Below, piece by piece: positions 34,367 through 59,862 of a DNA stretch of 64,000 nt (positions within the stretch are counted from its first letter, which is position 1; every line of letters starts with the position of its first letter). The DNA comes from Nemopilema nomurai. Lineage: Eukaryota > Cnidaria > Scyphozoa > Rhizostomeae > Rhizostomatidae. The stretch spans positions 3,168,781-3,232,780 of the forward strand of contig ML133387.1 of assembly GCA_003864495.1 (NCBI GenBank). The letters are read 5' to 3'. The notes under the pieces are model-generated. The model was not told where the DNA came from. It did no database searches and saw only the letters and a list, made by a program, of their open reading frames with translations. The translations under genes were made by a program, and so were the position numbers.

Positions 34367-36753
34367 TCACTCTAATATCACATATGGAAGAATCGAGACA
34401 CCATGGCTACTTTGAGCAACATTTTCTGACCAAGAACACCAGGCTCCATCCTTATTGTAACAACCATTAACTCCATCAGCTTCTACTACTGGATCTATAC
34501 AGTCTTCTGGCAATTGCTTTCTTATTACAGATAAGTCTTCTTCTGGAATGTCACTAGGGGGTTCAACCGCAACAGCCAAGCTATTACATAACTGACCTGA
34601 TTCAGTTTTCAATGACACTGTAATCCAGTCATCACTGTTTTCAACACTGCTATGTCCTGGTGAGGAATTTTCATTTTTAAGCCTATTATTATCTGTTATC
34701 ATACTGTCATTTGGGGATGATCTGTCAATGTTAACACCAATGCCAATAGAGTTATGTAGTCCATTTTGAGAGTTTATAACAGATTCACAACCTGACATGT
34801 CATTTGTTGAAATGTTTTCCTCTGTTAAACTAATACCATCATTTGATTTTTTTGAATCATTTGCATCATCCTTTTCATTTAAAGGTGAGCCCTCTGCACT
34901 AATACTTGTACGCCTTCTTTTTAAGCCTTTTTTCGGTGGAATTTCAGAGCATGATTTTGGCCTTTCTTCTTGTTCCTTAAGAACACCATTGATTTGAGGT
35001 GTGGGTGTAGATTTCCCATTGTCTCCATTCCCCGATAATTCTATGGCCTTTGCAAGATTTTTGAAGTGGTTGCTTACAAGCTTCTGCCATTTTTTTACAA
35101 GCCGTTTTGCACGTTTCGCCAAATCATCGTTATTCGTCTTTTTCCTCATCAAGTTGATGACCCTTCCGATTCTTGTAGCCTAAAGAATAGTAATGTGTAT
35201 AAAATACAAAAATCATATATATTCATATATATATATACATAATTGTTCTAAACTAACATTGACAAATAAATTAGCACAATTATAAAAAAGAAATCTTGTT
35301 TTTACAAAAACATCATGACTCAACATTGCAAATATATATTGCTTGTTATTAGATTTTTGTATGAACTAATAAACTAAATAGCATATAGTAATCATAAATT
35401 ATAGGGGGTGGAAACTAAACTATATATATACTTGAATTGCAATTGATAACATTATATGAATCAGATTATCATGTCCCTATCATATATTGAATGCTTGCTA
35501 GCTGCCTGAATAAAAAACAATTGGCACCACAACTGAAAACAATAGCCTGCTTTCTTGAAACATAAAAACTCCCTTAAACTGCCTTGAAAATTTGACAAAA
35601 ATAAGTGCTGAAAATAATTTTGACTGCAAATGAAGATGCTTCTTACTGCTGCTGCTTACTATCAGGTTTATAACAGTAGAACAAAGAACACAATAACAGC
35701 AAAGTTGAAACGTATGTGATTCATTAGACACACGCTAAATAACAAACAAAAAGTAATTTCTATATGTTTCTTTTTATTACAAAATTACAGGTGACCCATA
35801 ATAAGTATTTTCTGATTGGTAATATATCAACAATGAATGAACTTTGGAGGACATTCTTCTGAGTTGAAAAAGTTTAATTTGAAAAGGAGACTGTCTGCTT
35901 GCAATATTAGTGAGCCAAAGGTACATTTGTTTAGAATCAGAAACATGAGGAGATTTTCTTTACTTAAATAGCTTATACACTTTTGCACAAATTGTAGATG
36001 AAATTGACCTTGGAAAACAACTGGACTGTAATGTCTGGCAAAATATTTAATACTTTAGGGGATTCCTCTTTTAATTTTGTCCACATGGCACACAATTTTT
36101 AGAGTCGTAGTCATCAATCAAATTGGTTTTGCAAAATTCGTTATTATAAACAAAGCGGAATAGATCGCAAGACCGTGTTGAATTCTTTACAGAACTAGAG
36201 CTATAGTTATATAGCACAATATCAACAGATTATACAGTTCTTAATAACTCTATTGATAATTACAAAATAAATAAATGAACCGATGTTCTTTTTCATCAGA
36301 AGTTTTACTAGAAAATGAAAAGGAAATGGTTCAGAAATTTAAATAGTTAGGTTTTTTAAAAGTAAAAATGCGATGACTTGGCCTAAAAAATTAGGCCATA
36401 TGGTTCGTGGTTCCGTAACGATCTTTACTCTGATTCAAACATACAAATGATCTAGCCTTGAGCTTGTGACCAAAATTCATACAAGTAATGAATAAATGTA
36501 AGACATAGCACATACTTACCTCTAGTGCCTCTTTCGTTATTGTTATCTTTTCAAGAACAGCCACGATATCCAGGACTGAGGCCATATCAAGCACCTATCA
36601 AAGATGGCGAGGGTATCGTGAATCAGACATCCAATGGCAAATCGCACTTTTCATAACGACAAGAGACGGCGAATTTTCAAAAATACTTACATTTCCTTCC
36701 TGATCAACAACTTTATCTAGCCGTGCCTTTATTTCCTGGGGTGAGGGCGGCAT
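34367..36753 (-). CDS. MED26: Mediator complex subunit 26
   Basis: MED26 links Mediator to TFIID and to elongation complexes through its TFIIS N-terminal (LW) domain. There are three exons in phase: 36753..36691, 36594..36520 and 35179..34367, giving 316 residues. Residues 1-90 form the TFIIS-N helical bundle, with PSPQEIKARL, VAVLEKITITKEALE, ATRIGRVINLMRKK and LAKRAKRLVKKWQKLV, closely matching human MED26. A long Ser/Asn-rich acidic linker follows. The extreme C-terminus has DGVNGCYNKDGAWCSW and ends ILPYVILE, matching the conserved Mediator-docking tail (human ends ILPYVCLD). It is about half the length of human MED26 (600 aa); the loss is in the linker, so both functional ends are kept. 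Intron 1 carries a YY1-like AAGATGGCG near 36601. Confidence 0.95.
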
Positions 36754-38756
36754 GAATGCCTGCAGCCAATTTTTCTTCGGAGAGCATCTAGCTCCAACGG
36801 GTTGAGGCTAGTCATGACGCTCTCAAAGTCTTACTTCACATCTTATACCCTCGCGAAAGACAGCGGCACTGGGACGAATACAGAATCTTTGCGAGACGGC
36901 GCGAAATGCATTGTCGGATTATTATCGGTGCACGCTGGGTATATTCAAATGCATTGTGGGACGCAAGAGAGCGCGATTTTTTAAAAGTCTTAGACTTTCA
37001 AAGACGAATATCTACGTAATTTAGGAAATAACACGCGTAGTTTAGAAAGCTTACTTTCAAGCGAAAATATGCGCGAAGCTACATCCAATAGTGATTTGTT
37101 CTCCAGCGAAGCAAATACCAAGATAAAGAGCCATAATTTTATTTCTTTCAAGTTTTCAACGCAACAATTCATTTATTAGTGCGCCTGAATCTCAATTCTA
37201 GAAGCTAAATCGCATGCCCCTTTTCATTTTGATAAGTGGAATAGGTAAAGTGGCAGTGGAATTAACGCTCCAGCAACAGCGGGTCCTGCCCTTGCTGTGA
37301 CGTAGATGTGGTATCCAGTCCTCTTCGCTGTTATGTAAGTGAGATCAACTAGTAAAATGTCAATCGCTGTGATCACGAGATCATGTCGCGCTTTCAATAA
37401 ATCCATTCGTTGCTGGTAACATATCAGTGCTCTTTACTACTGCGTTTTTCACAACGACGCCAGAACAGTGACACATAAAAAACTCATCAGTGCACTTACG
37501 TATCAGTGCTCTTTACTACTGCGTTTTTCACAACGACGCCAGAACAGTGACACAAAAAACTCATCAGTGCTCTTACGTATCAGTGCTCTTTACTACTGCG
37601 TTTTTCACAACGACGCCAGAACAGTGACACAAAAAACTGATCAGTGCTCTTACGTATCAGTGCTCTTTACTACTGCGTTTTTCACAACGACGCCAGAACA
37701 GTGACACATAAAAAACTCATCAGTGCTCTTACGTATCAGTGCTCTTTACTACTGCGTTTTTCACAACGACGCCAGAACAGTGACACAAAAACAAATCAGC
37801 ACTAATTTGATCATGAATTTTTATCATTCTAAAAAGAACACGTCAAAAGCACTCTATTCGAGACTGTTAGAAATGATTGGAGGAAAAGCAAGACGAGACG
37901 AGGAAATAGGTTGTGCTTCATCTATTACCTGAAATCAACAAATGTAGTCCCTGATCTGTATGCTTCACACAATCCATGCAATCTCCATGCTTCGCATATT
38001 CTGTTTACAAGGCCGGCCTACACAAACTACTCTACGTTACTCTAGGACCAAACCTTTCGTTTCGAGTACATGATTTCTAGAAGGGTGTAATATAACACAG
38101 CGCGTTTAGAAAAAGGGATATGCATTGTCAAATGGTTACGTATAGTTCGAGGAAAAGGTTTGGGATCTTAAAAAACGTGAAATGACGCCAGCAGGTGAAG
38201 GTGAAAGGCTCATTAAACTGACTGCCAAGCTATGAATATTTTGTATCTTTGCCGCCATTTTGAATCCTCGGAGCATTAGCACTGTATACAACACAAATTG
38301 ATGTATATAAATATATTAAAGAACATAATTCAATTGTAAGAAAAAGGCAAGTTCAAGTGGCAAAATTTCTGGAATTTTAAATCAAGAACTCTTTTTCAAA
38401 GGAGTTGCGGCAAAGATGGCTCGTTTTTAATGGAAGACGGATGCGCAAATTTGATGGGTGAACTTGGATGGTCCAGTCTTACTCTATTTTCAATTTCGTT
38501 GACTTGAAATCGTGAAACCGTTGAAATGAACTCCGAGGGAAGCCACGAAGATGAAGAGGCCTAAACACAGATGAATGCAAAACTATGTACCTTTCTACAG
38601 TATTATCTCATAACATAGAGCCTCCTCTTCATACACTATCCCCGCTTTCGTGTACTATCACTGCCTACAGTTACTTCTAAAATAGGCCGCATGGCGCTTC
38701 TGTACGCTACTGATTTGCGATTGAAAAATTGCTTCTATTTAACGATGTTTAGTGAA
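36754..38756. other. MED26-p85 intergenic region
   Basis: Holds the MED26 promoter at the left, a five-copy minisatellite at 37422-37790 and the p85 3' UTR at the right. A YY1-type GCCGCCATTTTG lies near 38250. No coding exon was supported. Confidence 0.5.
37422..37790. repeat. Five-copy minisatellite, 77-79 base unit
   Basis: Units begin with TATCAGTGCTCTTTACTACT at 37422, 37501, 37578, 37655 and 37734. Each continues through GCGTTTTTCACAACGACGCC and AGAACAGTGACACA to a CTTACG end. Copies are nearly identical. The length changes are in an A-run (ACATAAAAAA versus ACAAAAAA) and one substitution changes CTCATCAG to CTGATCAG. Such identity implies recent expansion or homogenisation. Each unit contains the same short ORF segment in other frames, but there is no start or coding signature across the array. 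Confidence 0.95.
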
Positions 38757-41700
38757 TTACATGTATATACAGTCATCGTCCTCGATATATCGAATGGGAA
38801 ACATTAATGTGGTATCTAGAGTTGGGTTATGCATCTTTAAGGTCTGTTTGTGGTAATGGTGTATCAATGACTTCAGATCTTTGTAAATATTGTACGGCTC
38901 GGCGAAACCATAGCCACGGGGTCCGTGCTCTATTGGAATATGCTTGATTGACTGTTCGTGCCTACAGAACAAGAAAGACAACGTTACAACATCCATGGCT
39001 GAAGTGAATTTTCTCAAACATCCAAGCTTCAAAGAAATTTGTGGCTGAACTAGCAGCAATACCTTTGCTTCTGATTACAGTTTGACTCTGAGCGATCGCA
39101 TGTAAATAGTAATAGTGAACTGTAATACTGCAGAAATAATTCTCAAATGCACCATTTATGGCAAAATCGTGAAATTAAACTAAGATTAAGGATACATACA
39201 CCAGCGATATTACGTAGTGCCCAGGTTTTCGCTCACTTGACCGAACAAAAAATGTGCCATCGGGTTTGCCACTAAGCAAACGGCGAACTTCCTCCCTAAA
39301 AACAGAAACGATGATTGAACATATCAAACAAGAGCTACATAATCCTGAAGCAAGGGAATAATGGCTAAGCATTGATAAAAGCGTTCCTTATTGCGTTGTG
39401 TTTGTCGCTACCAGTGTGTGCCTTGGCATCGTGGGTGTTTCAACACTTTTCTTTCTGTACCACAGCTCTCTGGGTGCAAACAGTTGCAAGGGATTCATCA
39501 TTACCGGAGAGTTCAACCAACTTAAAAATCCAAACCAATAGACTGTCAAGAGACTATTAAATAGACTGGCAAATATTCGCTAACTATATTTCTAGAGATT
39601 TTGTGTTTCGTTTAACTTTAGAAACAGGACTCTATAGTGAAAAATGTCCACGGTTACACTGACAGATTATTCTGCACATAAATTCTATTTTACTACTATG
39701 AGCCATCACTACCAAGGTACCTGCTTTGAGAGCTGTGAGAATTTTAGGCAAACGCGAGTAAAAGAAGGAGCAAAAACACTTCTGTAAACCCTTCCAGTGA
39801 CCGTACCGTGTTACTCTACCCAAATAGCCACTCCTTTAACCTTCAAAACAGAAGCTTCACACAGAAAACTTGAGAACCAAAACTGTAATTCTGACCTTCC
39901 CACTCTTCCAAGAAGCCAAGACTGTTCGGGCAACTCTTCGCTTTCTCTCTGAGCACTCAATACTGGAAGTTCATCGTAAATACTATAGAAAACAATTGAG
40001 GACGGGCATAAAAATCATTGATTAGCAACTGCATTAAAAAGTAAGCGTGGAATGTTTAAAGAAAGCAAAGAACCATTTACTAGCATTGTGACAGGCCATT
40101 AAGAAGACAATCAATAGGACAATTTATGAGTATATATTCAGTTTATTAATATGCCACTAGAAGATATAACGTTGATTCTTTAGAGCAAATTATTATAATC
40201 CCGTAGTTTGTGTAACTGAGACACTGATTACGTCATTGCAATTATAATCTATTTTCACAAAGTTTTTGTTGTTGTCCAGACTAATAGCCTATTTTGTTGT
40301 TCCAAGAAAATGCATTTCCGGGAATTTTTGCCTAATTTGTACGTGTCGGGGTGAGTGGTTTCGTCACCACTAGCTCTTCCACTGAAAAGTCAATTTACAG
40401 GGCAGGAATACATTGGGAAATCGGTAGCACATTTGCAAAAGAAATCATACGAGACCTACCCTTCATTTTCTTTGTCGTAGAAACTTTTTGCCAAAGCAGG
40501 ATCGCTGTCCATGATTTTACTACGGAGAAAAATAATTGTGTCACTTAAAGGAGCTTTCATCTATTAAAAAAACTTAGGTGAAGCCTCCGATACCACCACA
40601 ACCGTGGTGATGTATTTTGCTAAAAGATGACACAATTCTATAAAAAGCATAAAAGACAGTCGCATGACTGGTTTTGCGCCATACACGATATTCGATTTTA
40701 TCATCCATCCTGAGCTAAATCTCTCCGAAATATAATGCAAAAATACAAAATGTAACGCATAATACATAATAAGATTTCAAACACATAATACGGGTATCTA
40801 ATACGGGTAGCCAATGAATTCAAGCAAATGGGTGATAGTCTCAAAATTAAATAGATGGGAGTGATTATGTACAGAGAAAGTCGATAAGAAGAAAACGCGC
40901 TAATGTTTATCAAAGTGTTCGGACAAGTGCCTAATCATATGCTGCCCAAGAATAGGCAATTAGGACTAATTGCATAAAGTGCCATATCGACAAGTGTGTG
41001 GAAAAAGGGGAGAAGCCGTTGTAACATATCATTTAGAAAATGTTGACTTGAAAAAATCTTGTATACTCATTCATTCTGGGACACTCAAACAATCATTGCT
41101 AAAAGAGTGTTTTGGGAGACTAGGATGAGGTGGGTGAAAGCATAAGTGATAAGATTGAAAAATATCAGGACCTGAAATAAGGCGTTCAATTTGGTTATGA
41201 AATATGACAAATGCTCAAGCTCCATCGGTAGTCGTGAGTGCCCTAAAAAGAATCTCGAAAAAGGTTGTAGAATGGATAAAAAATTGGAAATCTTGCGGAA
41301 ACTCGCCTTGTCAAGAACGACCAGAATTCTAAAATAGTCTTAGACTCATGAAAACAGATGAAAGCCGTTCTGTTAGGCATTATAATCAATAAAAATTCAT
41401 ACCTCTGCAGTGCATTGTATCTATTTTTAATATCGGTCAAGTCATATTTCATTCCATTTAGCGTCTTTTCTAAAATTGAGTACTCTTCATATTTCAGCCG
41501 GAATCTCTCGTCTGCCTCGCGTAAGGCCCCTTTCTCGTTCTCCAGACTCGAATTCAAACGTAACGCTGTGTCATTTAGGCTGCAAAAGAAAACCTACGTA
41601 GCAATCAATATGTAGAAAATATCGCGTGCTTATGCCTATATTTTACGCACGACATTACTTTTCAACATACTGTGTCTTCATATTCATAGCAGTATTAGTG

Positions 41701-44700
41701 AACATCATATTACCAGGATTTCAAGTGGCATTTACTGTTAAAGGGACATCCTGGGCAAGCAGGTTTAAAAACCATGTCCATAACGGCAAGGCTGAAAGTC
41801 CAAAACTTCCATTTTTCAACTTAACGGTACTTGTGTTAGAAACTAACGGGAAAAACATTTTACTCCAAATTTTGTGACTGTTAAACATTAATTATCGATG
41901 ATGAAAGTATCAATTTTCAAGACCTTGAAATCAAATGATCTGGCTAACTTATAGGAGTCTAATCAGTTCTTATCAGTAGCTAACATTTCCTAAATCCTTT
42001 TCATTTATAAAATCATTTAAATGAAAGCTTGTGTCTGAGATAGGTAAATCTTTGAAAACATACAAGCTCCTATCTTCTGGCGCCACCTCTTGTAGCAAGC
42101 CGCGGGTTAGACTCAGCTGGTCTTCTATAACATATATCACCTCGGCTTGGGCATCAAGAAGTTCCTTAGCATCTTCTAATTCCTGAAAAATGCAGAGAAA
42201 TTTTATATAGAAACCATGCATTGAAGCAAAATTACTCAAATATCGTCTTGCCAATTGGCATCATGTGAAAAAGCTAAGCATGGTTACAATAAACTGCTAC
42301 CAAGGGAAATGTGATGGTTATTAAATGACCCATCTGACAAAGAATGTTCCATTTGACAAAGAACGACCCATTTGAATTACTCATTTGAATAATAATGACC
42401 AATCTGACTTTGACTGACATGGTTGACTGAGTTTTATACAAACCTTGTAAGTCTCATTGAGTTTATTTTCGAGAGCCGTGTATTGTCCCAGTTGTGAAGA
42501 GACATCTTGGAGCTCCTGCTCAAGCTGGCTTGCAGGAATGTCAGGTAGGTTCTGAAAAAAACAAAGTACCAGATACAGCCATGAACTAAAGAGCTCCATC
42601 AAGTCCCTCAGTTCACAAACCAAGTAAAAACAACTTTGACTTTATAACAGTGTTGCGTCCTTCATCGGTCATTATCCTGTCAACTAGTATCATACGCTAA
42701 ACCTACAACGCTAGAAGCTTCATATTGCTTTCATTAGGCAATAGGGTAGAAAACTGTAAATCAAAAAGTACAGCAATAATCCTAATGGTCAAATAACCAC
42801 TAGGATAAAATTATGCCTAAATGTATTATCCTATCAATGAAAAGGTCAATCTTTAAATAAAGATAGTGCAACATGCGAATTTGAAAGTCTAGTGGTCCCG
42901 TAAATCTGTGGAATTTGACTTTCTCGAATGCAATCAAATTTGACCTGCCAGTGGATTCTCGTTGGACTTCTCTCTGCCAGGTCTGTGTATACACAAAGTC
43001 TGCACAGAAAAGAAACGAATTCGTTGCTAAGAAAGTATCACGAATCACATACCTCATATTTTGACACAGGAAACAGAAGCTTGGCATCCAAACTTGAATT
43101 GTATTCTCGCAATGAGTGGCTGCAGTAATGACTAATCAGGGCGGGAAGAGATGGAAACGTCGTCGAGTCGGTAAAACCAACTTTGCCATCTTTCTGGTAG
43201 ATTCTTATCAGCTTGTTGCCTCCACCTTTCCTTTGACAAAAATCCCCAAGTTTCAGTAAATGCCGAGAGAAGAACAAATCAGAACTTAAGATCTGCCCTC
43301 TATCAACTTTGGTTTTAACTCTGATGCCAAACAGTGAATATGGTAACATGGAAATTTAGCATGACAGGGAACCATGACATGATATTAAAGTGGCCATGAC
43401 AAGTTTTGTGTGGAAAAAACTAATGTTCAGGGTTGTGAGGAGACATTTTCAACTCACAGAAAACATACATTTCAATGATAAAAGCAGCTGTGGGTGTCAA
43501 TACAGTGTATTGATGTTCAGCATTTCACTACCGTACTGTTATATATTTGTCGCACATTATCAAATAATGATTGTATTAGTCTTCAAGGCTTCAAGATCTC
43601 CTGAAAACTTAAAGGATCTCTTAACCATCATCATTATTATCAGAATTAGAATCATTTTCACTGCAATTTACTACTCTTGGTGAGATGTCTAAATGGGAGC
43701 ACAGATTTGAACTAAAAGTCCATCTTTCATCTTGTCTTTAATGCATTGACTCTTGATTCGCACCCAAAGAACAAGCTTATACTTCACAAACCATTTGTTC
43801 TCGCAAATCAAACAAGATTTTTTTTATTAGTATAATTTTACAACTATCATTAGTATTCATACCATTATATTATTGTCAAGAATATTTCAAAATGATTTTA
43901 GATTGAAATGCTAAATGTTGAATTGAATTGAAACTGAATTTGGATTGAAAAGATGATAAGAAACTGTGAAGGAGCAGTGAAATGTTACAGGGTATTAGCA
44001 TATATACCTGAGAGTGAGTGTATATTCGCCTCTGTTGGTCGAGTCTCTCACTAGAAACGTACCGTCTGGAGTGTTTCTTAGTTTTTCTGAAGCAACCTCC
44101 CTACAAGTGGCAACAACAACAACAAATTAACGAAGTTCCCACAAAGATGTGTTCGCAACAATACGCATAATAATAACATTAATAAATATAAAAAGAAGCA
44201 ATGGTCTTCAACAACCGTTTTTAGATACAATTGAATTTCCAGAAAAATATAATAGATGATAATTGGGAAAGGCTATTTATTAATCACAGTAAGCACCGAC
44301 TTAAGAGTAGCGCCATCACTGTTACAATAAAGTCGAAATCACGTTGAAGCCCCGTCCTGCTTGTTCAACGTTTTTGACTGCGTTTACACGGGAACGAAAT
44401 GGAACCGCGATTAGAAGCTTACGGATAGATCTTGCGTCTACATGGGAACTGATGGAACCGTTCCAAACAGAACATCTAGAAAGTAGGTACCGTATAGAAC
44501 CGTACTGAAAAACCCTCGTGTGAACACCAAGAGCGGTTCTCGCCAAGTACGCTTAGAAATGAGGCATGAGAATTCGACTGGGGGTGATTCGCCGTGCGTG
44601 AATGGACAAAAAAGAAACAGTTCTGCACAGTACGGTTCCAAAGACATCGTGTAAACGCAGCCCGTGCTGTGTCGTGGAAATTGAGAATGCGGAAGAACGT

Positions 44701-47700
44701 TGCAAAGTAAACAGAGAAATAAAGCGGGGAATCCCAAACAGAGGTACCTTGATATCGGGCCCCAGTACCATTCGGCTGCTTCGAGGCTGGAACGGGGGAC
44801 CGGTGACACAATACTACGACGGCTTTCTCTGCGCCCTAAAACCAGTGCAACGTAAACAAATTACCACGAAGGGAAACGTAACGCATTGGCGGACCCAAAT
44901 TAGACTAAATATTACTACTAAGGCCGGGGTTCTAAGTCGTGCTTTTCATGTGGCGAACCTAATTGCTGAATTAAGTACATGAAAAGCGTAGTGTTTTACC
45001 GGGACCTAAGTTACAAATTGCTGAAAAACCACAAAATGAAAGCAATCTCTGCAACAAAAAAGAAAGAACAAAAAGATACACTGCGTCTCAAATTTAACAA
45101 CTATGACTGGGAAATTTCATCTAGCTCTCTTTCAAGAACAATTGTGTTGGGGATTTCAAGCTTCAAAAATGGGCCATTACCCAATTCCATGGTAAATTAA
45201 CAATCGAGACTATTTATAATATTCAACATCAATTATCAACAAGTTTCAATAACTCGAAGTCACAAAAAGACAACGGGTCCATACCTGGTACTGCTGGTTT
45301 TGCGTCAGGGCTTTGACCAATGAGCAAGGCCATGACCGTCTTTTGATGCTCCAAGTTGACAACTAATGTCCTAAAAGCCAGACATCTCAACTTCAACTCT
45401 TTTAGTGTGGCAACAAACGGTTTATAGTTGAAACCGCACTAACTAAGCAAAAAATAGAGCAAGTTTACTTGACGTGTTCCGTTCCAAGCTTTGAAAATGT
45501 GAATTCGAACGAGGTAGTTGCAAGCAACTTGGGCATGTTCATCAAGATTGACTTCCTGAAAACATTTCCTTGTCCTTCGTACACCACGCAACGGTGTTGA
45601 TCAGACGTGTCCTCGGATCGAATTACGGAGAATAAATTGTTGTAGGGAATCCTCTTGGAGAATTGCGGTTTTAAAGACCACAGAGGCAATCCATACCTCG
45701 AAGCTTCGTGAGGAATCCCAGACAGATGCATTTACCGCACGAAAAAGAAATTGATCAATCATTTTCATTATGCAAGAGATATCCAGAGAAGGCTCCAATC
45801 TTTTCGCGATAAAATTGTTTTTACATCTTATAAGCCATTGAGGGGCCTAATCGTGATCCTGATAATTCAATGGCGGAAAGCTTTTGACTCTCTCTGGAAG
45901 CAACATAGCGTAGCATAGCAACAACAACGAAGCCTCCATCTCGTTTGCGCCAATAAAAACAAGAGCAACAAACAAAGCAACAAATAAAGCTACAGTTTTT
46001 GAACCGTGTTTCGGGTTTTTGAGGAAATTAAGGTTGGGAAAATAAGGAAAATAGAATGAATGTGAAAAAAGAATAAATAATAAGTGCAGCTTATTAAATA
46101 AAAAAATCTTAAGACAAAGCATGCTGGCAAAAAAGGGGCGACAAGTAGCGAGTTCAATTTTCAAGAAATCCTATCCTCGAGTCATATGGATAATATATAA
46201 TATAATAATGATGGCGATATAATAATGACAGGATCTACAGAAATATTTATAGCCTTCTTCGACAAAGACATTGCATGGCTACACACCAAAGTTCAAGAAT
46301 GTTAAAAATTTGGTAACTGACAATTATCAATCTTAGTCTAAGAGTAGTTTGATAAATAAGGATTCAAAAGAAGAAAACATCTCACCTCGCATTGTTCTCT
46401 GATGGCCGTAGGATCAATACACTAAATTCCGTAAACATTTTCTCTAGGGTTGATTGGTCACAGCTTTTGCACATTCTGTGTTAAAAAAATCATTTGTATC
46501 AAAAATATGCTATATAGTGAGAACTGAAGCAAAATCCAAAAAACAATTCCATGTAAAAATAATACTTTGATTATTCATTTGTCGCACAAAACATAACTAC
46601 AACTAAACAAATTGCGAGGTGTTGTTCTATTACAAAATTTAACAAAAAATTGACCCACTTGATAAGGTGCTTTTGTATAAACTCTAGGCATTCTCTGTTC
46701 TTTCTCGGTAGTTTCTGGATTTTACCACTAAGCAGATCTTCACTGCCCCGTAACGAAAGACTGAGCTCTGAAATTAGTTGATCAAAGTAAGCAAAAAATT
46801 CACATCATGTTTACCTGAAAAGGGAAACTAAAGAAGAGAAGAAAAGAGGCAATCTTACTGAGAGTTTGCATACAGGACATTCATCAAGTACTTCCTGCCA
46901 ATAATTCTAGGAATTCGGCATACGACACAGTGTGCAAAGTCTCATCCCTGCTAATCCTACCAAGTTTCACATCCCCCTCATCCTCCACCACCCTATCTCC
47001 ATCTCTCAACAGAGATTACTTTTTCTTGTGATAATCCAACCCACATATTATCTAGCCGTCATAATTGACAACGCCATTGAAGAATTTGAAAATGATAAAA
47101 TCTACGAGATACATACTTGCAGCTACAGTAAAGTCCTCGTATGATTCCGGGGGTATAATGGATGAAGGCATCTCCAGCAAATAACGCTTCAGCAACGAGG
47201 CTGCAACGTACGGATTTTGCCACTCTTCGCTTCTCATGTTAACGAAACTAGGAGCTGGGAAAGTAAAAACGACCCTTTAGGAAAATTCAGCCCTAGTTTG
47301 CCAAAAGTCTTAACTATTTCACTGGGCAATAATACAAGCTATATATATTAAAAGACTGGTGCAATACATAAAGTGAAACATGCACCCTTTAACACGCTTG
47401 TGTCATACGACTTTAATGTATTCTTTGTATAAAGATTTAAAAACGCAAATGTACATCAATACAAGTAGGCAGTCAGATGCTGTTGAATCAAAGCTTGATA
47501 CAACCCGAGTTAATCTGATTAAAGATCGTTACTTAATTATTTAGTCAATTCTTATCTTATTGGACGACTCCGTACCAAAAAGTGGCTCGAAAAAATTACT
47601 GGTTTCTGATGATATTCTCAAGTAAACCTATGTCAAGTCGATTGGGAAAATTGATTTCAAAGAGTAAATCTTCTACAGAATGTTGTTTTAAGATGCGGTC

Positions 47701-50700
47701 CAGCTCAGATTAGGCCAGCCTCCTGCTGCAGAGAGACTGTATTGAGGTCATCCTTCCAATTTCCTCTATGGTATGATTAAACTCGAGCAACAGCTTTTAA
47801 AAAAGCTTATTAAACACAGCAAACCTTGATTTAAAGCGTTTCTCAACGAAAGAAGCTCTAACAATGGAACTGTTGTCAAATATACATCATTTGTCGTCAG
47901 TCCTTGCTCTTCGATCGCCAAAACGAGGTTCTTCATCGTCAATGGGATGCTCTCCTCTAAATTTTTACCAAATGAAGGTTCTAAAAAGGAAATAAAAGAT
48001 TGATTCTCCTGGCGGTTCAATTTTGATGCAAAGGAATACCAGAGCGCGGGTATCAAGTAACGTTTTGGCGATGCAATTGAGAGTATCATTCTAGGCAAAA
48101 AGATGTCGCCCTTAATCTACCAAACAATAATCTATATGCAACATGGTTTAGGTAATTACATTGTGGGGATGGGGAGGGATTCATGGCCCAAATCTTGACT
48201 CACAATATTGCCAGTCAAAGCCAACAGACTGGTGCTCTAGAAAAACATGGCAACTCAACCAACAATGGTTGCATGTTTTGAACTTGCTTCAGAGCTTAGA
48301 GAGCGTGATACCTAGAGTTAACTTTGCCTGAAGTATTTTACTGCAATCAATACCAGTTTGGTTATGCTAAACCCAGCCCAATGCACCATCAAAATTTCAT
48401 TAAGACGACCGGAGTTAAGACAAACCTTGGACATCGCTTGATCTTCTCGAGTGATAATACTTCTGCTTACATGCGGCTAAGCCATATTGCGCACAAGGCC
48501 GGTGACACTGTACGCCACATTCTACAAAGCAAAGACGATTCCGATGTTCAAAGTTCTATTGTAACAAGCTCTAGGCCTAGCCATCCAGGCAGATGCCACA
48601 TTTTATACAATGAAACTTAGTTTCTTTAATTACTCAAAGGTAACCAACAAGAATGAATTCGAGAAGCCAGAAACTCAGGAATATGCCCAAAGGGAAAATT
48701 GAAGCCTAGGATTCAAACACAAAAACATGGTTCGCGAAATGTCAAAGATTACTATAAATAAACACGGCTAGCAGGATAGATTGTCTTGATTTGTAACAAT
48801 TAGTTGGAACAGTCTTTCAAAATCGAGGCAGGTATCTGTTGGAGCTTTTCGCAAACGCAAATGCACATACCCGCCCGTTGACTTGATGCATCGAAAACAA
48901 GGCACGAAGACATCACGGTCAAAAAGCTTCAAACGTAATCCCAAGTGTCGGATAAAATAATTTGCAAATCGAATTCCCGGGAGAAGGCTGCCGTTCACAG
49001 ACAGAATCGGCCTTGGAGGCATTGCTTTCAAGCAGTAAATGAATCCTCTCGGGAATGTGAGTTTAGAAACACCTGCCTTTAGCTTTGCGATATAAACTGA
49101 TTTGTGAATGCAAATCTATTTTACTTTAAATCTGCAGTGCATTTAAATGCTTGTTTAAGAAACCAAAGGCGAGGAGTGCATTTCAAAGACGAATTGTTGA
49201 ATGCGACAGCAGTCCTCGTGTGATTAATCATTCAGGTCAGTCGGGCTCAAACATCGAATGAACGGATAATCCAGCCACAACACGTATTCTTGGAAGATAA
49301 ATGTCTTGTGAAAGCCAATGAAGACAAATGCCTCATTTGATTTCAACTAGACAACAAGACAGGCTCTTCAAATCGGTTGCGATATTCCAGTTAAAAGCAA
49401 GGGGTAATATTTGCCATGTTTAAAAGCACCCAGCTATTGTGGCTTTACATTGCAAGATAAAACGAAGAGGTGACAGTTAAACACGCATTGGAGACAGTTA
49501 CGCATAGCAACTGGGCTCAAACGCAGCACAGGTATTGGGAGTAAGTAGAGACAGTTGATGACAACACTCACCTTTACATATGACGCCCTGGCGCACAAGT
49601 CCAAACATGAACTTCTGGCAAACATCGCAGGCTTGAATCGTGGTAAACGTATGCTCTCTTAACACGTGGCTTTGAATGTTAGCTATGGTGGAAGAGGTAG
49701 CTTGTTAAAGGAAGTATTGCAAGTGTAAACAACGAGCCTGTAATCATGGCAACCAAGGGAATAGCATGGATGGTTGCGTAAACCATTGGTTTCACAGGCG
49801 ACAGTTCCAACGAAAAGAGTGATTAGCTATAATTCTTCATCTTACTCCAGACGATAAAAGGAAGAAGATCAACGGAAATAAAGCATTGTGTTTTGTTTTA
49901 GGTCTTTTTCACTATCGCATATTTCATCAATTTTAACTCATGTTCTCATATTTCCTTCAATTTATCTATATTCTAGGAATGTTGGAAGAAAACGTTTTCG
50001 ATTGTAAACTCACGTCGATGAACATAGATCAAACGTAAATCTAATCCTACTCATCAAAGAAGGCTAATCTTGCTTGCATCACTAATGCTTCACAAATTCA
50101 TCAAAAATCTCAAATTGACAATCTGCTGTTACCTCCACAAGAATCTACGAAATTTTCGTTTGGTTCCGCCATATAGGGATGTAGTGGATTGGGAAAGTCC
50201 ATCTAAATCAAACGGTGAAACAGGTAAGGAAGTGACGTCATCCAATGACATCAACATATCATGAAAGATCTACATTCAATGATTACAAACATTTTACTAA
50301 TAGAACATTCAAAGATTGCCTAGACAGCCTTATCACATGTCTATATCAATTGTGAAATGAAGAAAAATATGACTAATGAAGCGTTGATAAATATGATGAT
50401 AGCAACAAAAACAAAGTTTAGGTCGCTTGTCCCTGCGAGACAAATGATGGGATGCAGGTAATAACATTGGTGTGTGTCTTGATGACAGGAGCATGTAAAA
50501 AAAGACTAGCATGAGGTAAGCTTCACTTGACAAAATGAGGGAAATCATTAGCAAAGGCTGCTGTTAGGGGATATACCGAGAAGCCTTTTAAACGCAGGAC
50601 AGAAATTAGCTAAGGAGGAAATTTTAGGCCACACACCCTTGCACAGCCTTTGGTCAGCTCTTTTATCGAATTGTGTAGACTTTTTATATCAAAGTCATGA

Positions 50701-53224
50701 GGTATTGCCAGAACCTAGAAAAAAGTGATGGAAAAGGCATTATACATTAGATACATAGTGAATGAAAGCTAAAATGTGAAACAAATATTTAGTAAGTTTC
50801 GAAGTTAAGCAAATAGAAACACATTTAAAATCCAACTTCAAAAGAATTTACCAGTTGGTTGCACATGTTTTGATTGGGTAGAAAAAATTAGCTGTTTTTA
50901 CCTAAACTGAGAAGCCTGTTTTGCAACCAACTGTTAACTGCTTGAGACAAGTTCACTTTTAACAGTGGTAAGTCTAAAAATTAGCATAATGAAACTGCAT
51001 ATAAAATAGCTAGCCAGTTTTTCAAACAGGAACAATATGCATTTTTTGACAGCAAGAGAGTTTTGAATGTCACAATAAATAAACAAACCCTTTTAAGGTA
51101 AGACTCATCTACTTCGTACAATACAGAACCAGTGACATTAGCTGCTAGGAATGTGTGCATGTACTGATAGGCCCTAATGGCTGCTACCCACTCTAAAACA
51201 TCTGAAACATCCCACTCTTTCACTTGCTGAAACCAAAAATGACATTTTATTTTAGATTTCTTTCACAGTGAGGCTAAAAAAGCTAATTACAGTTAAGGTA
51301 TGTAAAAGAACAAACAACAGCTATAGAAACAAATAAGAGTCTAGTTGATAAGTTACATGCATGCTTGTTTTTAAAACCAAAGAAATACTATTATACAATG
51401 AAATCTTAATACCCAAAAGTAGTTGGGAAAATTTTCAACTACAACATGAAACTTCCAAGCTCCAACAACAGCTGTTATAAAACAGGAACAAATTTGCTAC
51501 AAAAATTAATAGTTATTGGTTATCCATACCAGGAGATAAAAGTTGCTTAGTACACAATTTAATAAAATTCAAATAGGATAAAATTCATCATATACTAGTT
51601 ACTCACTCTCAACAAGTCTGACTTTTGATAATCAACTGCAAGTTTGCGATCAGGATCACATGCAACACTACCAAAAAAGAAGCTACAGCCACAATGGCTT
51701 GCTAAGCAGCATTCTGTGAAAAGAGTAAGCAAAATGAATCAGGGTATGTAGAATCAAAGCAGGAAGCACTGCAGTAGCCATAGAAAGATTGGAATGGAAT
51801 CAAAATCATTACATTTCATACATACACTTTTTCAAATTATAAGCTGCTTGGAAAAAATCATTTTCCACCACATATTTTTGTTCAATACTACACTACAATG
51901 TTTCATTTAGAGCTATGAATAAACAAATACAGCATTGATATCTGATCGACATATAAAGAAAGGAAACAGTGATGAAATAACTAACATTTTCTAAAATGTT
52001 GAGAAGCAAATTGGTATCAGAATTTAGCATTTTAAAAATTACCATCTGTTTAGATTATAACATACCATTGCACCAGAAGCTATATCGATTGATTCCCCAA
52101 ATATAATCAAGACCTTCAAATGAAACATGATTGATTATCATAGCTCAAGCTATTATAGTTAAAAGGATATGAAAAACAGCAAGGGCTGAAACATTTCCCA
52201 TAAAAAAGTTCTGGCAGGGATTTTGGCAGAGAAGAGGTAGGAGGAAATTTCAGCCCCTATTCTGTGATATGACAAAGGAACATGGTCATACAGTCAAGTT
52301 TCATCATTAATTATATAATTAATTAATAGAGCAGGCCAACCCTTTAGGCAGTGATTAAAAAATTCATGTCATGGGCTTTATAATTTTTCTTGGTGGTTGG
52401 AAAAGTGCAGGTTTGCAGTAGCAATTGTGTCACTGCAATAAAATGGAATCAGGTTTATAACTAGGTAAGGTTCTCCAGGTGTATTGGATATCTTCAAAGC
52501 AATTGACATATGACAAATGTGCATTAAACAGAACATATCTTGTGCCAAGCACCAATACTCACATTGAGAGCACCAAACAGGTTTACTAAACATGACCTTT
52601 TCAAGGTCATGGTTATTTATCTCCAAACTTGACAAGCTTTGACCTGAAAAATACATGTATTGATAAATTTATATATGCCTGTGGTATATATAATTTGAAT
52701 TTTAAGTTCAAAGTCTGATTTTTGTAGTCTATGTTTATCAGGCAACCTGTATAGTCCTGCCTTCTTGGTACCAAGTACCAAGTTAGATGGCAAAAAAGAA
52801 ATATTCACCAAAAGTACAAACTTTGCAACAATAAAGAAATTCTTGGAACATTTCAGTTCTACTTTTCTGATAGCTATCTTGAGTTTTGAAGGCACCCAGG
52901 ATTAATCAATATATAAATCTAAAAAGCTAAGCAATTTCTGTTACCTTTTAGCATTGTTGGCTTTGTCAGATTTGCAGGCTTTGGAGGCCTTGGTGGTGGT
53001 GGTGAGAAGTCCTCCACTATGGACACAAACGTCCCAGGGATCTGACCATGATCACCTGTATTCTTGTTTGTACCTATTAGCCATCCCAATGGGTCAATGA
53101 TTGGCTTGGCAACAACTATCAAGTCTCCTTTGTGTAATTCAATTTCACCTTCATCCTGTGGCTTGTAGTCATGCTCTACCACAAAAGTCACAATGCCAAC
53201 ATTTCCTTCAATACTTGATTTCAT
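38757..53224 (-). CDS. PIK3R: PI3-kinase p85-type regulatory subunit with added C1-SAM-C1
   Basis: Class IA PI3K adaptor that binds p110 through iSH2 and phosphotyrosine through SH2 domains. 24 exons join in phase (932 aa; human p85-alpha 724): 53224..52945, 52643..52563, 52113..52066, 51713..51607, 51226..51089, 50714..50637, 50202..50133, 49682..49572, 48521..48426, 47980..47825, 47254..47117, 46767..46659, 46475..46386, 45370..45285, 44835..44748, 44100..44008, 43230..43053, 42551..42444, 42182..42064, 41579..41403, 40519..40460, 39982..39896, 39295..39200, 38961..38757. Domains: SH3 8-72 ([20 protein letters not shown]); Pro-rich 73-90; C1a 105-155; SAM 175-242; C1b 273-322; RhoGAP-like 338-505; nSH2 552-648 ([14 protein letters not shown]); coiled iSH2 650-800; cSH2 826-932 ([15 protein letters not shown]). 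Both SH2 FLVR arginines are intact. The RhoGAP-like finger reads VYLTT where human p85-alpha has YRT. The orthologue assignment to PIK3R1/2/3 is not possible; it is probably pre-duplication. Confidence 0.93.
44378..44660. mobile_element. MITE-like element with CTGCGTTTACACG ends
   Basis: The left end CTGCGTTTACACG is matched by an inverted CGTGTAAACGCAG at the right. The matching continues inward as TGGAACCG on the left and CGGTTCCA on the right. The interior repeats GAACCGT motifs in both orientations. Length is about 283 bases with no intact transposase. It lies in the p85 intron between the exons that split the start of the N-terminal SH2 domain. Confidence 0.65.
45465..45731 (-). CDS. Intronic ORF in the p85 gene, unrecognised
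   Basis: An open frame of up to 88 residues, in the same direction as p85, in the intron between the last RhoGAP-like exon and the linker exon. It is less AT-rich than its surroundings and begins at an ATG ([18 protein letters not shown]). A second overlapping frame extends from 45798. It may be a fragment of an inserted sequence or an alternative exon. No family is recognised. Confidence 0.2.
   Translation of the reverse strand: MHLSGIPHEASRYGLPLWSLKPQFSKRIPYNNLFSVIRSEDTSDQHRCVVYEGQGNVFRKSILMNMPKLLATTSFEFTFSKLGTEHVK
48426..49682 (-). other. C1b zinc finger exons (p85)
   Basis: Exons 49682..49572 and 48521..48426 encode His273, 12 residues, CDVC, 13 residues, CKEC, 4 residues, His311, 2 residues, Cys314, 7 residues, Cys322, an exact C1 spacing. 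The core [14 protein letters not shown] keeps Gly23, Gln27 and Gly28 of diacylglycerol-binding C1 domains, but position 11 is Ile instead of Pro. It lies directly before the RhoGAP-like domain, the same order as in chimaerins. The Glu of CKEC is created across the splice (G|AA). Confidence 0.93.
48768..49022 (-). CDS. Intronic ORF between C1b exons, unrecognised
   Basis: An 84-residue frame from an ATG ([19 protein letters not shown]) to a stop, inside the intron that splits C1b. It is rich in Arg and hydrophobic residues. The real C1b half-exons lie on both sides and join without it, so it is not part of p85. It could be an inserted fragment; evidence for expression is absent. Confidence 0.18.
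   Translation of the reverse strand: MPPRPILSVNGSLLPGIRFANYFIRHLGLRLKLFDRDVFVPCFRCIKSTGGYVHLRLRKAPTDTCLDFERLFQLIVTNQDNLSC
50637..51226 (-). other. SAM domain exons (p85)
   Basis: Exons 51226..51089 and 50714..50637 join in phase 0 to give a five-helix SAM pattern. It runs from [13 protein letters not shown] (the usual W-x-x-x-D-V-x-x-W-L start) through [19 protein letters not shown] and YLKRVLAI to [11 protein letters not shown] (the final helix). The exon boundary falls before the fourth helix. SAM domains commonly self-associate or pair with other SAM domains. Confidence 0.85.
52066..52643 (-). other. C1a zinc finger exons (p85), first half
   Basis: Exons 52643..52563 and 52113..52066, with the next exon 51713..51607, encode His105 then 12 residues, CSQC, 13 residues, CNEC, 4 residues, His143, 2 residues, Cys146, 8 residues, Cys155. 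The standard C1 pattern ends with 7 residues, so the last spacing is one longer. Pro at C1 position 11 and Gly at 23 are kept (KPVWC, WGINRY). Position 27, usually Gln in diacylglycerol-binding C1 domains, is Tyr. Two of the eight ligands are split by introns and are restored only when the exons are joined, which strongly supports this gene model. Confidence 0.9.
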
Positions 53225-57936: not shown

Positions 57937-59235
57937 CTATGCTGTGCTATTATCCTTCAGTGCCTGAGCTCTTTTCCTGAATTCAGCAGACTTCTCCAAG
58001 TCTTTCTCTACTCCCTCACCCATTTTATACATTCTACTGACATTAGCACAGGCCCATGGGTGGCCAAAGTTACAAGCCTTTAGAGAAAGTTCAAATGCTT
58101 TCGGCAAGTCCTTTTTGATACCATTTTTACCAGTAAGATAGATGCAACTAAGGTTAAAGCAGCCAAGACAGTGACCGCCTGTGCATGCCTTCTCAAAACT
58201 GCTAATAGCTTTGTCCATGTCCATTTTAATATTTGACTTTTCATGACCACTCTGGTGAATCATTGCTGCATTGTTACAAGAGCCAACAGAACCACCATCA
58301 CATCCACGCTCAAAGTATTTCAGAGCTTCTGCAATGTTTTTGTCTATGGTTGAAAGGATACTACAAAATGCTTGTGAAACAACTACTGGTGAAAATCAAA
58401 GTGCTTCACTAAAAATGCCAAGAAAATAATGATAAGGGCTAACAAATTTTGAAGATCTATTATGTAGTTGTAACATGAAAATGACACGTTGTCAAAAAAA
58501 GTTATTCAACATATTGAAAGTGATGAATGGATTTTTTGACTTGCTTTTTGACAGACATTTTAACACATGGGAGGATCATGGGTAGGAGTGAGAACTTTCA
58601 ACTTCTGTAAAATGAACAGTGAACAAGCTCTATTGTTAAACCTAGCTTTCGGCACAGAGTAAGAAAATCAAAACAAACTGAAACTATTATTCTAATGGTA
58701 CAAGGAAAACCAAAAACTTACCTTTTCCGGAAAATAGTAAATATCCCAAGGAAAAACAGCTATGTGCATGACTTCTTTCTTCACAGTTGGTTTTGAAAAT
58801 TCTTTTTGCTCCTTCTAAATCTCTTTCAACAACTTGATAAAATTCCCCAAGCTCATGGCACCCTAAAGATGGAGAACGGAGAAAATTTAATTATTAGGTA
58901 TGTGTTTAAACCTATGAATTACTACCTAAAACTTCCTAATAATGGGGTGTATAAAGAGGCCAAAATCAAAAGAACGCTCGCTCTGATTCTAATCTTTAAC
59001 AAAAAATGGCTCAAATGCATGGTGTGTTGGCTACAATTTTTAAAAATAAATGCAACTTATATAAGACTTATATTGATAAAAAAGTCTTCAGAAAGCAGGA
59101 ATGACATAAAATACAACCTTCCTTTTTGCCTCTGCTACAATCATGCGTTAAAAGCTCTCGAAGTTGTTCAACATACTTCTTTGTTTCTTCTTCTTCGCTA
59201 ACACCAGAGGAAAAAAGATTCTTTAATCTCTCCAT
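57937..59235 (-). CDS. COA7: Cytochrome c oxidase assembly factor 7 (Sel1-repeat)
   Basis: COA7 is a mitochondrial intermembrane-space, Cys-rich helical-repeat protein needed for respiratory complex IV assembly. Three exons (59235..59118, 58862..58722, 58343..57937) join in phase for 221 residues (human 231). Residues 1-39 form an acidic helix beginning MERLKNLF. Then come Sel1-type repeats in which cysteines recur in pairs, for example CEERSHAHSCFSLGY, CDGGSVGSCNNAA, CTGGHCLGCFNLSCIYL and CNFGHPWACANVSRMYKMG. The last closely matches the human C-terminal repeat. The codon split G|GG restores KKEGCHELGEFY at the first junction. There is no cleavable presequence, in line with MIA40-type import. 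It shares a promoter with HDDC3. Confidence 0.95.
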
Positions 59236-59322
59236 TTCATAACAGCTAAGGAATAGGCATATGTCCCATTTATGTTCTACCTCTGAGTGAAGGGATTGAG
59301 GCCTCGTTCTGGCCAAATAAAA
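59236..59322. promoter_or_regulatory. COA7/HDDC3 bidirectional promoter
   Basis: Only 87 bases separate the two start codons on opposite strands, so both promoters and 5' UTRs must overlap or run into the neighbour's coding region. A YY1-like AAAATGGCGG covers the HDDC3 start codon. No TATA box is visible. This is direct from the sequence; use of a shared promoter is inference. Confidence 0.7.
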
Positions 59323-59862
59323 ATGGCGGATATAACGTTGCTGGTAAAGTGTACAAATTTCGCCGCAATAAAACACACAAATCAACGCCGGAAGAACATT
59401 GAAAAGACGCCATATATAAACCATTCTATTGGTGTTGCACATATTCTATCAGAAGAAGCTGGAATAGCTGATGTAGATGTGCTAGCTGCCGCCATTTTGC
59501 ACGACACAGTTGAAGACACTGACACAACATTTCAAGAAATCGAAGACTGCTTTGGACATGCAATTAGAGTGATCGTCGAAGAATGTTCCGATGACAAGTC
59601 ATTGCCAAAGGATAAACGAAAACAGTTGCAAGTAGAGCATGCGCCCATTTGCAGCCCAAAAGCAAAGCTCGTCAAATTAGCGGACAAGATATACAATCTT
59701 CGCGACTTGAACACCGAAACGCCCGAAGGTTGGACAGATGAAAGGGTAGCGGAATATTTTACATGGGCTGGCAAAGTATTTCAGGGGTTAAAAGGAACGA
59801 ATAAAATTCTTGATGATATTTATATCGATTTATTGAAAGAGAAGGGGGTCGACTTTTCTTAA
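59323..59862 (+). CDS. HDDC3: MESH1, metazoan SpoT-like ppGpp/NADPH phosphohydrolase
   Basis: HDDC3 is an HD-domain metal hydrolase that cleaves ppGpp in vitro and acts as a cytosolic NADPH 2'-phosphatase in animals. The product is 179 residues, the same as human. Metal ligands are His34 (YINH), His60-Asp61 (ILHDTVEDT) and Asp121 (KLADKIYNLRD). The catalytic pair Glu64-Asp65, the RRK substrate loop at 22-24 and PEGWTDERVAEYF are intact. It lacks synthetase, TGS and ACT domains, as all MESH1 proteins do. The whole CDS is one exon, unlike every other protein gene here. The start was set at MADITLL; an in-frame upstream NTG would add a basic tail with no family support. Confidence 0.97.
   Translation: MADITLLVKCTNFAAIKHTNQRRKNIEKTPYINHSIGVAHILSEEAGIADVDVLAAAILHDTVEDTDTTFQEIEDCFGHAIRVIVEECSDDKSLPKDKRKQLQVEHAPICSPKAKLVKLADKIYNLRDLNTETPEGWTDERVAEYFTWAGKVFQGLKGTNKILDDIYIDLLKEKGVDFS

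What the first reader, a model, noticed from the sequence alone, without database searches (positions are those of the whole stretch)
38757..53224. PI3-kinase p85 with an inserted C1-SAM-C1 module
Seen: 24 exons read in one phase-consistent chain give SH3-C1-SAM-C1-RhoGAP-SH2-iSH2-SH2. Known: vertebrate p85 alpha and beta have SH3, RhoGAP-like and two SH2 domains with no C1 or SAM. Inferred: the PI3K regulator gained, or the ancestor had, direct lipid sensing (C1) and multimerisation (SAM). It would couple diacylglycerol signalling to PI3K in one adaptor. I know of no description of this architecture.
Basis: partly seen in the sequence, partly recalled or inferred. Interest (0 to 1): 0.92.

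Follow-up and report, generated by a model that had tools for sequence, protein, structure and literature searches.

The report
Jellyfish PI3-kinase p85 with C1-SAM-C1 module
This is a real jellyfish gene for the regulatory subunit of PI3-kinase that carries two C1 domains and a SAM domain absent from the human protein; such domains are already in print for other invertebrates, so the arrangement looks like an old animal state that vertebrates lost rather than a new insertion.

Summary
Twenty-four exons (53224-38757, minus strand) splice in one frame to a 932-residue protein, SH3-C1-SAM-C1-RhoGAP-SH2-iSH2-SH2. The Rhopilema esculentum protein is 79% identical over its whole length, three further proteins 54-58%, and 23 of 24 exons are hit one by one. 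Genome searches with a jellyfish and a vertebrate query found no second p85, and a class IA p110 exon is present.

C1 in cnidarian and molluscan p85 and SAM in molluscan and arthropod p85 were published in 2015 (PMC4617754), shrimp p85 with two C1 and a SAM in 2025 (PMC12817958). The module is therefore probably ancestral and lost in vertebrates, not inserted. Direct diacylglycerol sensing is doubtful: zinc ligands are kept, but the first C1 lacks the essential Gln-Gly pair in 5 of 5 proteins and the second the essential proline in 4 of 5 (PMC9110374). The RhoGAP arginine finger is gone in 5 of 5. I read the module as a scaffold on an ordinary PI3K adaptor: a new member of a known kind, of modest interest.

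The parts
52945..53224 (-). exon 1: start codon, SH3 domain (residues 14-69) and proline-rich stretch PPPPRPPKP
   Evidence: residues PPPPRPPK of this stretch invariant in 5 of 5
52563..52643 (-). exon 2: first C1 (C1a), part 1
52066..52113 (-). exon 3: C1a part 2 (WG loop), 16 codons
   Evidence: not hit on its own by tblastn
51607..51713 (-). exon 4: C1a part 3 and linker
51089..51226 (-). exon 5: SAM domain, part 1
50637..50714 (-). exon 6: SAM domain, part 2
50133..50202 (-). exon 7: SAM-C1 linker
49572..49682 (-). exon 8: second C1 (C1b), part 1
48426..48521 (-). exon 9: C1b, part 2
47825..47980 (-). exon 10: RhoGAP (BH) domain, with the arginine-finger position replaced by Leu371
47117..47254 (-). 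exon 11: RhoGAP (BH)
46659..46767 (-). exon 12: RhoGAP (BH)
   Evidence: one tblastn stretch spans exons 12 and 13
46386..46475 (-). exon 13: RhoGAP (BH)
   Evidence: one tblastn stretch spans exons 12 and 13
45285..45370 (-). exon 14: RhoGAP (BH) end
44748..44835 (-). exon 15: linker and start of first SH2
44008..44100 (-). exon 16: first SH2 with FLVR arginine
43053..43230 (-). exon 17: first SH2, end
42444..42551 (-). exon 18: iSH2 coiled coil
   Evidence: helices in the model of the Rhopilema relative
42064..42182 (-). exon 19: iSH2 coiled coil
   Evidence: as above
41403..41579 (-). exon 20: iSH2 coiled coil, with Asn766 placed at p85alpha Asn564 (numbering recalled)
40460..40519 (-). exon 21: iSH2 end
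39896..39982 (-). exon 22: linker with Tyr806 (in the column of the vertebrate p85 tyrosine that I take for Tyr607) and start of second SH2
39200..39295 (-). exon 23: second SH2 with FFVR arginine
38757..38961 (-). exon 24: second SH2 end, conserved tail, stop codon

Best explanation
The gene is the one class IA PI3-kinase regulatory subunit (PIK3R, p85) that I could find in a jellyfish genome close to Scyphozoa. Its C-terminal half works as in vertebrates: two SH2 domains dock on phosphotyrosines, and the iSH2 coiled coil holds and restrains the p110 catalytic subunit (by homology). The SH3-C1-SAM-C1-RhoGAP half is an older and fuller form of the p85 N terminus, present before cnidarians and bilaterians parted and reduced to SH3-RhoGAP in vertebrates. 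The RhoGAP part and the first C1 have lost their catalytic or ligand residues, so the front half most likely acts as a scaffold: zinc-stabilised C1 folds and the RhoGAP fold as protein or membrane contact surfaces, and the SAM domain as a protein-protein contact. The second C1 keeps the Gln-Gly pair and may still contact membrane lipid weakly. Shown here: gene structure, domains, residues, no second copy at search sensitivity, presence of a p110 exon. Inferred: function of each domain, ancestral state.
For: Exon chain and domains; four full-length relatives with the same order; human p85alpha is the best solved match (4e-86), and Foldseek of the Rhopilema model ranks p85alpha chains first. Two iSH2 helices, 655-712 and 719-788, are modelled with ten-residue blocks at pLDDT 79-94 from 661 to 780 (65 and 68 at the outer ends). 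Both SH2 arginines are kept 5 of 5 and Asn766 5 of 5. In the genome 19 of 27 matches to P0001 lie in this locus, among them all 17 with E below 1.2e-6. A p110 exon has PI3K_p85B 3.6e-23 plus PI3K_rbd and matches p110delta 1e-40. Residue losses were judged by PMC9110374 (passages). Ancestral state: PMC4617754 section 11 and PMC12817958 passage.
Against: No transcript, protein or binding data for this species. PMC4617754 reports for Cnidaria C1 and an extra SH2 but no SAM, and SH3 only in choanoflagellates and ray-finned fish p85alpha, so its cnidarian architecture is not identical to this one. Only 120 of 767 nSH2 matches were listed, so I saw no molluscan, arthropod or anthozoan member with C1 or SAM myself; the one named arthropod row, P0023 (Diaphorina, partial), has neither in its listing. 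The C1-SAM-C1 stretch of the model is under pLDDT 50. The iSH2 Pfam score is under its cut-off in my scans of all five proteins.
Confidence: 0.8

Rival explanations
1. One reading: a C1-SAM-C1 cassette was inserted in this lineage and makes the adaptor a direct diacylglycerol sensor that couples DAG to PI3K.
For: Exons 2-9 are 729 nt, flanked by phase-1 introns on both sides. C1b keeps Gly23, Gln27 and Gly28 in 5 of 5, and P0003 keeps all four DAG residues.
Against: C1 and SAM are in print for molluscan and arthropod p85. The symmetry is common: 36 of 253 runs of internal exons here are 1-1 and 82 of 253 symmetric. C1a lacks Gln27 and Gly28 in 5 of 5; C1b lacks Pro11 in 4 of 5, and these are strictly conserved in DAG-sensitive C1 domains (PMC9110374).
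Confidence: 0.12
2. The C1b-RhoGAP unit shares one origin with chimaerin, so the orphan RhoGAP domain of all p85 proteins descends from a DAG-regulated C1-RhoGAP protein.
For: C1b and RhoGAP align to beta2-chimaerin as one stretch (9.2e-19) with no gap across the linker.
Against: In the same search the chimaerin chain that holds RhoGAP alone scores 23 bits, below ARHGAP15 (55) and ARHGAP12 (43). In a 17-row RhoGAP tree chimaerins do not join p85; p85 rows of both kinds are split from six other RhoGAPs at only 80/85, and the program warned that long branches meet. C1b does not join chimaerin C1 in a 22-row C1 tree.
Confidence: 0.15
3. Gene-model artefact: the C1 and SAM exons belong to a nested or separate gene.
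For: None found; exon 3 is short and has no tblastn hit of its own.
Against: One phase-consistent chain on one strand; the same order in four other proteins, two of them uninterrupted frames on contigs of about 3.3-3.5 kb.
Confidence: 0.02

Closest known systems
Rhopilema esculentum 'PI3K regulatory subunit alpha-like' (P0001)
   Same: Full length, 79% identity, same domain order and the same residues gained or lost at the DAG and arginine-finger sites except for the letter at Gln27 and Gly28 of C1a
   Different: Sequence only; no function reported in the calls
Penaeus vannamei PI3Kp85alpha (PMC12817958, passages read)
   Same: Two extra C1 domains and a SAM domain absent from the human orthologue
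   Different: SAM described as N-terminal; order relative to the C1s not stated in the passage; sequence not compared here
Class IA regulatory proteins of Mollusca, Cnidaria, Ichthyosporea, Arthropoda, Choanoflagellida (PMC4617754, section 11 whole, section 12 part 1 of 2, and passages)
   Same: C1 in Mollusca, Cnidaria, Ichthyosporea; SAM in Mollusca, Arthropoda, Choanoflagellida; RhoGAP and two SH2
   Different: For Cnidaria an extra SH2 and no SAM reported; no count of C1 copies and no residue analysis in the parts I read; figures not held
Vertebrate p85alpha and p85beta
   Same: SH3, RhoGAP(BH), SH2, iSH2, SH2; 4e-86 to p85alpha in PDB
   Different: No C1, no SAM; the RhoGAP YR arginine is kept in 8 of the 9 vertebrate-type rows with that domain (Lys in P0114) and lost here; the psyllid row P0023 lacks it too
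CDD models for C1 repeats of 'PIK3R-like' proteins (C1_PIK3R-like_rpt1 and rpt2)
   Same: Recalled: curated models for two C1 domains in uncharacterised PIK3R-like proteins
   Different: Recalled only; a paper search for these names found nothing relevant

Membership tests
Class IA PI3K regulatory subunit (p85/PIK3R) | Two SH2 domains with phosphotyrosine-binding arginine, flanking an iSH2 region | tested here: met
   SH2 x2 1.7e-37; both arginines 5 of 5
Class IA PI3K regulatory subunit (p85/PIK3R) | iSH2 coiled coil that binds p110 | tested here: inconclusive
   PF16454 2.3e-6 but 27.7 bits against a cut-off of 31.5; two long helices, mostly confident, in the Rhopilema model; Asn766 conserved; binding not testable
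Class IA PI3K regulatory subunit (p85/PIK3R) | RhoGAP-like (BH) domain before the first SH2 | tested here: met
   RhoGAP 1.6e-17 at 349-479
Class IA PI3K regulatory subunit (p85/PIK3R) | A class IA p110 partner with a p85-binding domain in the same genome | tested here: met
   PF02192 at G000:C105, 1.1e-21; Pfam and PDB on the ORF
DAG-sensitive C1 domain | All eight zinc ligands | tested here: met
   C1a and C1b, 5 of 5 proteins each
DAG-sensitive C1 domain | Pro11, Gly23, Gln27, Gly28 all present (PMC9110374) | tested here: not met
   C1a: 4, 5, 0, 0 of 5; C1b: 1, 5, 5, 5 of 5; only P0003 C1b has all four
Catalytic RhoGAP | Arginine finger after the conserved Tyr (recalled as the usual RhoGAP finger) | tested here: not met
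   Leu or Phe in 5 of 5
SAM domain | Pfam SAM above cut-off | tested here: met
   SAM_1 26.6 bits, cut-off 23; over a SAM cut-off in 4 of 5 proteins, P0003 just under at 22.0
SAM domain | Self-association | not testable with these tools
   Best solved match neurabin-1 SAM 0.0021; the module was modelled under pLDDT 50
Chimaerin (SH2-C1-RhoGAP, layout recalled) | C1 or RhoGAP domain joined in one clade with chimaerin | tested here: not met
   Trees (22 rows; 17 rows), both small and partly unresolved

The most novel reading that the evidence does not exclude
The textbook p85 is a stripped-down form. The animal ancestor's PI3K adaptor already had SH3-C1-SAM-C1-RhoGAP-SH2-iSH2-SH2, a multi-contact scaffold whose C1 and RhoGAP parts turned into non-catalytic, non-DAG pseudo-domains. 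The otherwise puzzling, nearly inactive RhoGAP domain of vertebrate p85 would then be the last remnant of that scaffold, and jellyfish would keep the whole machine.
Probability: 0.45. Interest if true: 0.5.

Novelty: new member of a known kind. Interest (0 to 1): 0.33.

Why it matters
It gives a complete gene-level example of the fuller p85 in a non-bilaterian animal, with no second p85 found and a p110 exon in the same genome. With the two published notes it turns the question 'what is the RhoGAP domain of p85 for?' into one that can be tested in a jellyfish or shrimp protein that still has its neighbours. The residue losses warn against reading C1 here as a diacylglycerol sensor.

Tried and rejected
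Exon-shuffling argument from symmetric phase-1 introns: rejected, since 36 of 253 runs of internal exons in this gene are also 1-1. Extra exon between exons 10 and 11 (an open stretch at 47709-47599): rejected by eye, because exon 10 joins exon 11 directly in frame and the joined sequence aligns without a gap to the relatives. Nested gene on the other strand: the longest plus-strand open stretch inside 48426-52643 is 78 codons; not scanned against Pfam. Chimaerin origin: tested by trees, not supported. Second p85 on contig C12 (43% to the second SH2 of vertebrate p85beta): the frame reads as an SH2-tyrosine kinase of Src type by eye, not a p85. The RhoGAP hit elsewhere on C23 (28%) was fetched but no frame of 500 codons lies wholly inside the piece, so it was left unidentified. 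Family PF16454 in the own genome gave 0 of 1 genomes, uninformative because iSH2 is split over exons. Wider survey of the family: two full-protein searches scored only 8,000 candidates and gave 14 and 20 hits, of which 4 are true relatives and the rest C1 proteins; the nSH2 search listed 120 of 767, mostly vertebrate by name. AlphaFold did not resolve the C1-SAM-C1 part. Paper searches; one search listed 15 of 24, 10 of 54 and 10 of 178 papers, so absence is not claimed beyond those listings. None listed a title on this exact order; led to PMC4617754, and searches list PMC12817958. PMC8797975, listed in several, was not opened. PMC10838073 (one passage) had nothing on domains.

Full report
The observation. 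I rebuilt the chain on the minus strand from anchor sequences. The first C1 spans exons 2-4 and the second exons 8-9.

It is more than chance. A search of a 5.8-billion-protein collection, in which only the 8,000 candidates sharing most words were scored, gave 14 hits, of which four are full-length relatives: P0001 of Rhopilema esculentum (class Scyphozoa; 79% identity over 100%), and P0002, P0003 and P0004 without species names (58, 54 and 55%, covering 98-100%). All four have the same order. In the precomputed listing P0003 and P0004 lack a SAM entry; in my own scan SAM_1 scores 22.0 bits in P0003 (cut-off 23) and 24.2 in P0004. tblastn with P0001 hits 23 of 24 exons. P0002 and P0003 are uninterrupted frames on contigs of 3,471 and 3,283 bases, which I take as spliced transcripts (inference).

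What it is. The best solved relative is human p85alpha, 4e-86. The whole-genome search with P0001 gave 27 matches: 19 lie in the p85 locus on contig C23, among them all 17 with E below 1.2e-6, and 8 lie on other contigs, best 1.2e-6, over single C1, SH3 or SH2 stretches of the query. A vertebrate p85beta query gave 9 matches, 3 of them in this locus. Its first SH2 found this locus at 2.1e-15; the best match elsewhere was a RhoGAP, 28% identical, at another place on C23 (9.6e-8, not identified further), and the next an SH2 on C12 (7.6e-7) whose frame reads as a Src-type tyrosine kinase. So I found no second p85; a very divergent one, or one in small exons, could be missed. The same genome encodes a p85-binding domain and a Ras-binding domain in one frame, closest to p110delta: the class IA partner is there.

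Residues. In the five proteins all eight zinc ligands of both C1 domains are kept. The four further residues called strictly conserved in DAG-sensitive C1 domains by PMC9110374 (12 of 18 passages shown) are Pro, Gly, Gln and Gly. In C1a they are present in 4, 5, 0 and 0 of 5; in C1b in 1, 5, 5 and 5 of 5. C1a is thus predicted not to bind DAG, and C1b to bind weakly at most, with P0003 the exception. The RhoGAP arginine finger (its usual place is recalled) is Leu or Phe in 5 of 5; it is Arg in 8 of 9 vertebrate-type rows that hold the domain, Lys in P0114, and absent in the psyllid row P0023. PMC7458397 (12 of 15 passages shown) says that the GAP activity of p85alpha is very low and that Arg274 was implicated as its finger; by my placing (recalled numbering) that arginine corresponds to Arg494 here, kept in 5 of 5, so a p85-type activity is not excluded. 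Both SH2 arginines and iSH2 Asn766 are kept in 5 of 5. The proline-rich stretch after SH3 is nearly invariant. Tyr806 falls in the column of a vertebrate p85 tyrosine, which I identify from recall with Tyr607, the dimer switch described in PMC7458397.

Structure. AlphaFold2 on P0001 with 15 aligned rows gave mean pLDDT 61.8 and pTM 0.30; SH3, RhoGAP, both SH2 and a two-helix iSH2 are modelled with fair to good confidence, and residues 71-339 (C1-SAM-C1), except one residue, are under 50. Foldseek ranks p85alpha chains first, with low TM-scores over the whole model. The model therefore supports the p85 half and says nothing firm on the module.

Origin. The decisive evidence is in print. PMC4617754 (section 11 whole, section 12 part 1 of 2, other passages) reports C1 in class IA regulatory proteins of Mollusca, Cnidaria and Ichthyosporea, and SAM in Mollusca, Arthropoda and Choanoflagellida. 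[quoted passage not shown] With the jellyfish gene, the simplest history is one ancestral module and loss in vertebrates. Cautions: the 2015 paper gives Cnidaria and Ichthyosporea an additional SH2 and no SAM, and SH2-C1-RhoGAP is also the layout of chimaerin (recalled), so some of its calls might be mixed; I could not fetch those sequences; and the one named arthropod protein in my listing, a partial Diaphorina protein, shows neither C1 nor SAM. CDD also has, as I recall, models for two C1 repeats of PIK3R-like proteins.

Side test. C1b plus RhoGAP aligns to beta2-chimaerin in one piece, which suggested a common origin. Trees do not support it: C1a and C1b are each a clade at 100/99, C1a joins PKC beta C1A at 91/93, C1b stays unresolved (22 rows); the RhoGAP rows of jellyfish-type and vertebrate p85 are both on long branches, separated from six other RhoGAPs at 80/85 and not joined to chimaerin (17 rows). 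The program warned of long branches meeting in both trees.

How it probably works. Shown by sequence: a p85-type adaptor with intact SH2 arginines and a p110 exon in the genome. By homology: SH2 domains bring p110 to phosphotyrosines. Inferred: SH3, proline-rich stretch, C1a, SAM, C1b and RhoGAP form a contact-making front half. With the C1a and RhoGAP ligand residues gone, I favour protein contacts and membrane proximity over second-messenger sensing. SAM self-association is possible, not shown.

Verdict. Real gene, real architecture, correct coordinates; the domains are not undescribed, the module is probably not inserted, and probably not a diacylglycerol sensor. Interest 0.33.

Noticed in passing
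window 34370-36765, minus strand: A MED26-like gene (Med26 1.3e-8) lies directly downstream of the p85 gene. P0004 is a model in which p85 runs into a MED26-like protein that matches it (1.6e-46), so this adjacency is conserved in another species and P0004's tail is probably a fusion of neighbours.
   Followed up: partly
window 38757-38800, minus strand: The C-terminal tail RY(I/L)EDD(D/E)xIYM is near-identical in the window protein and P0001-P0003 and absent from the vertebrate p85 rows; no function known to me.
   Followed up: no
window 57940-58395 (-), 59287-59859 (+), 61871-62176 (-): Neighbouring reading frames with Sel1 repeats, an HD domain (HD_4 1.2e-17) and MORN repeats.
   Followed up: no
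L009 1018-1824, minus strand (G000:C105): Exon of a class IA p110 with p85-binding and Ras-binding domains, closest to p110delta in PDB.
   Followed up: partly
residues 105-155 (window 52643-51607): The first C1 resembles PKC C1A rather than the second C1 of its own protein (9.7e-12 to PKC beta; tree 91/93), so the two C1 domains do not look like a recent tandem copy.
   Followed up: partly
P0023 (Diaphorina citri, partial): The psyllid p85-like protein also lacks the usual RhoGAP arginine, so loss of the finger may be wider than jellyfish.
   Followed up: no
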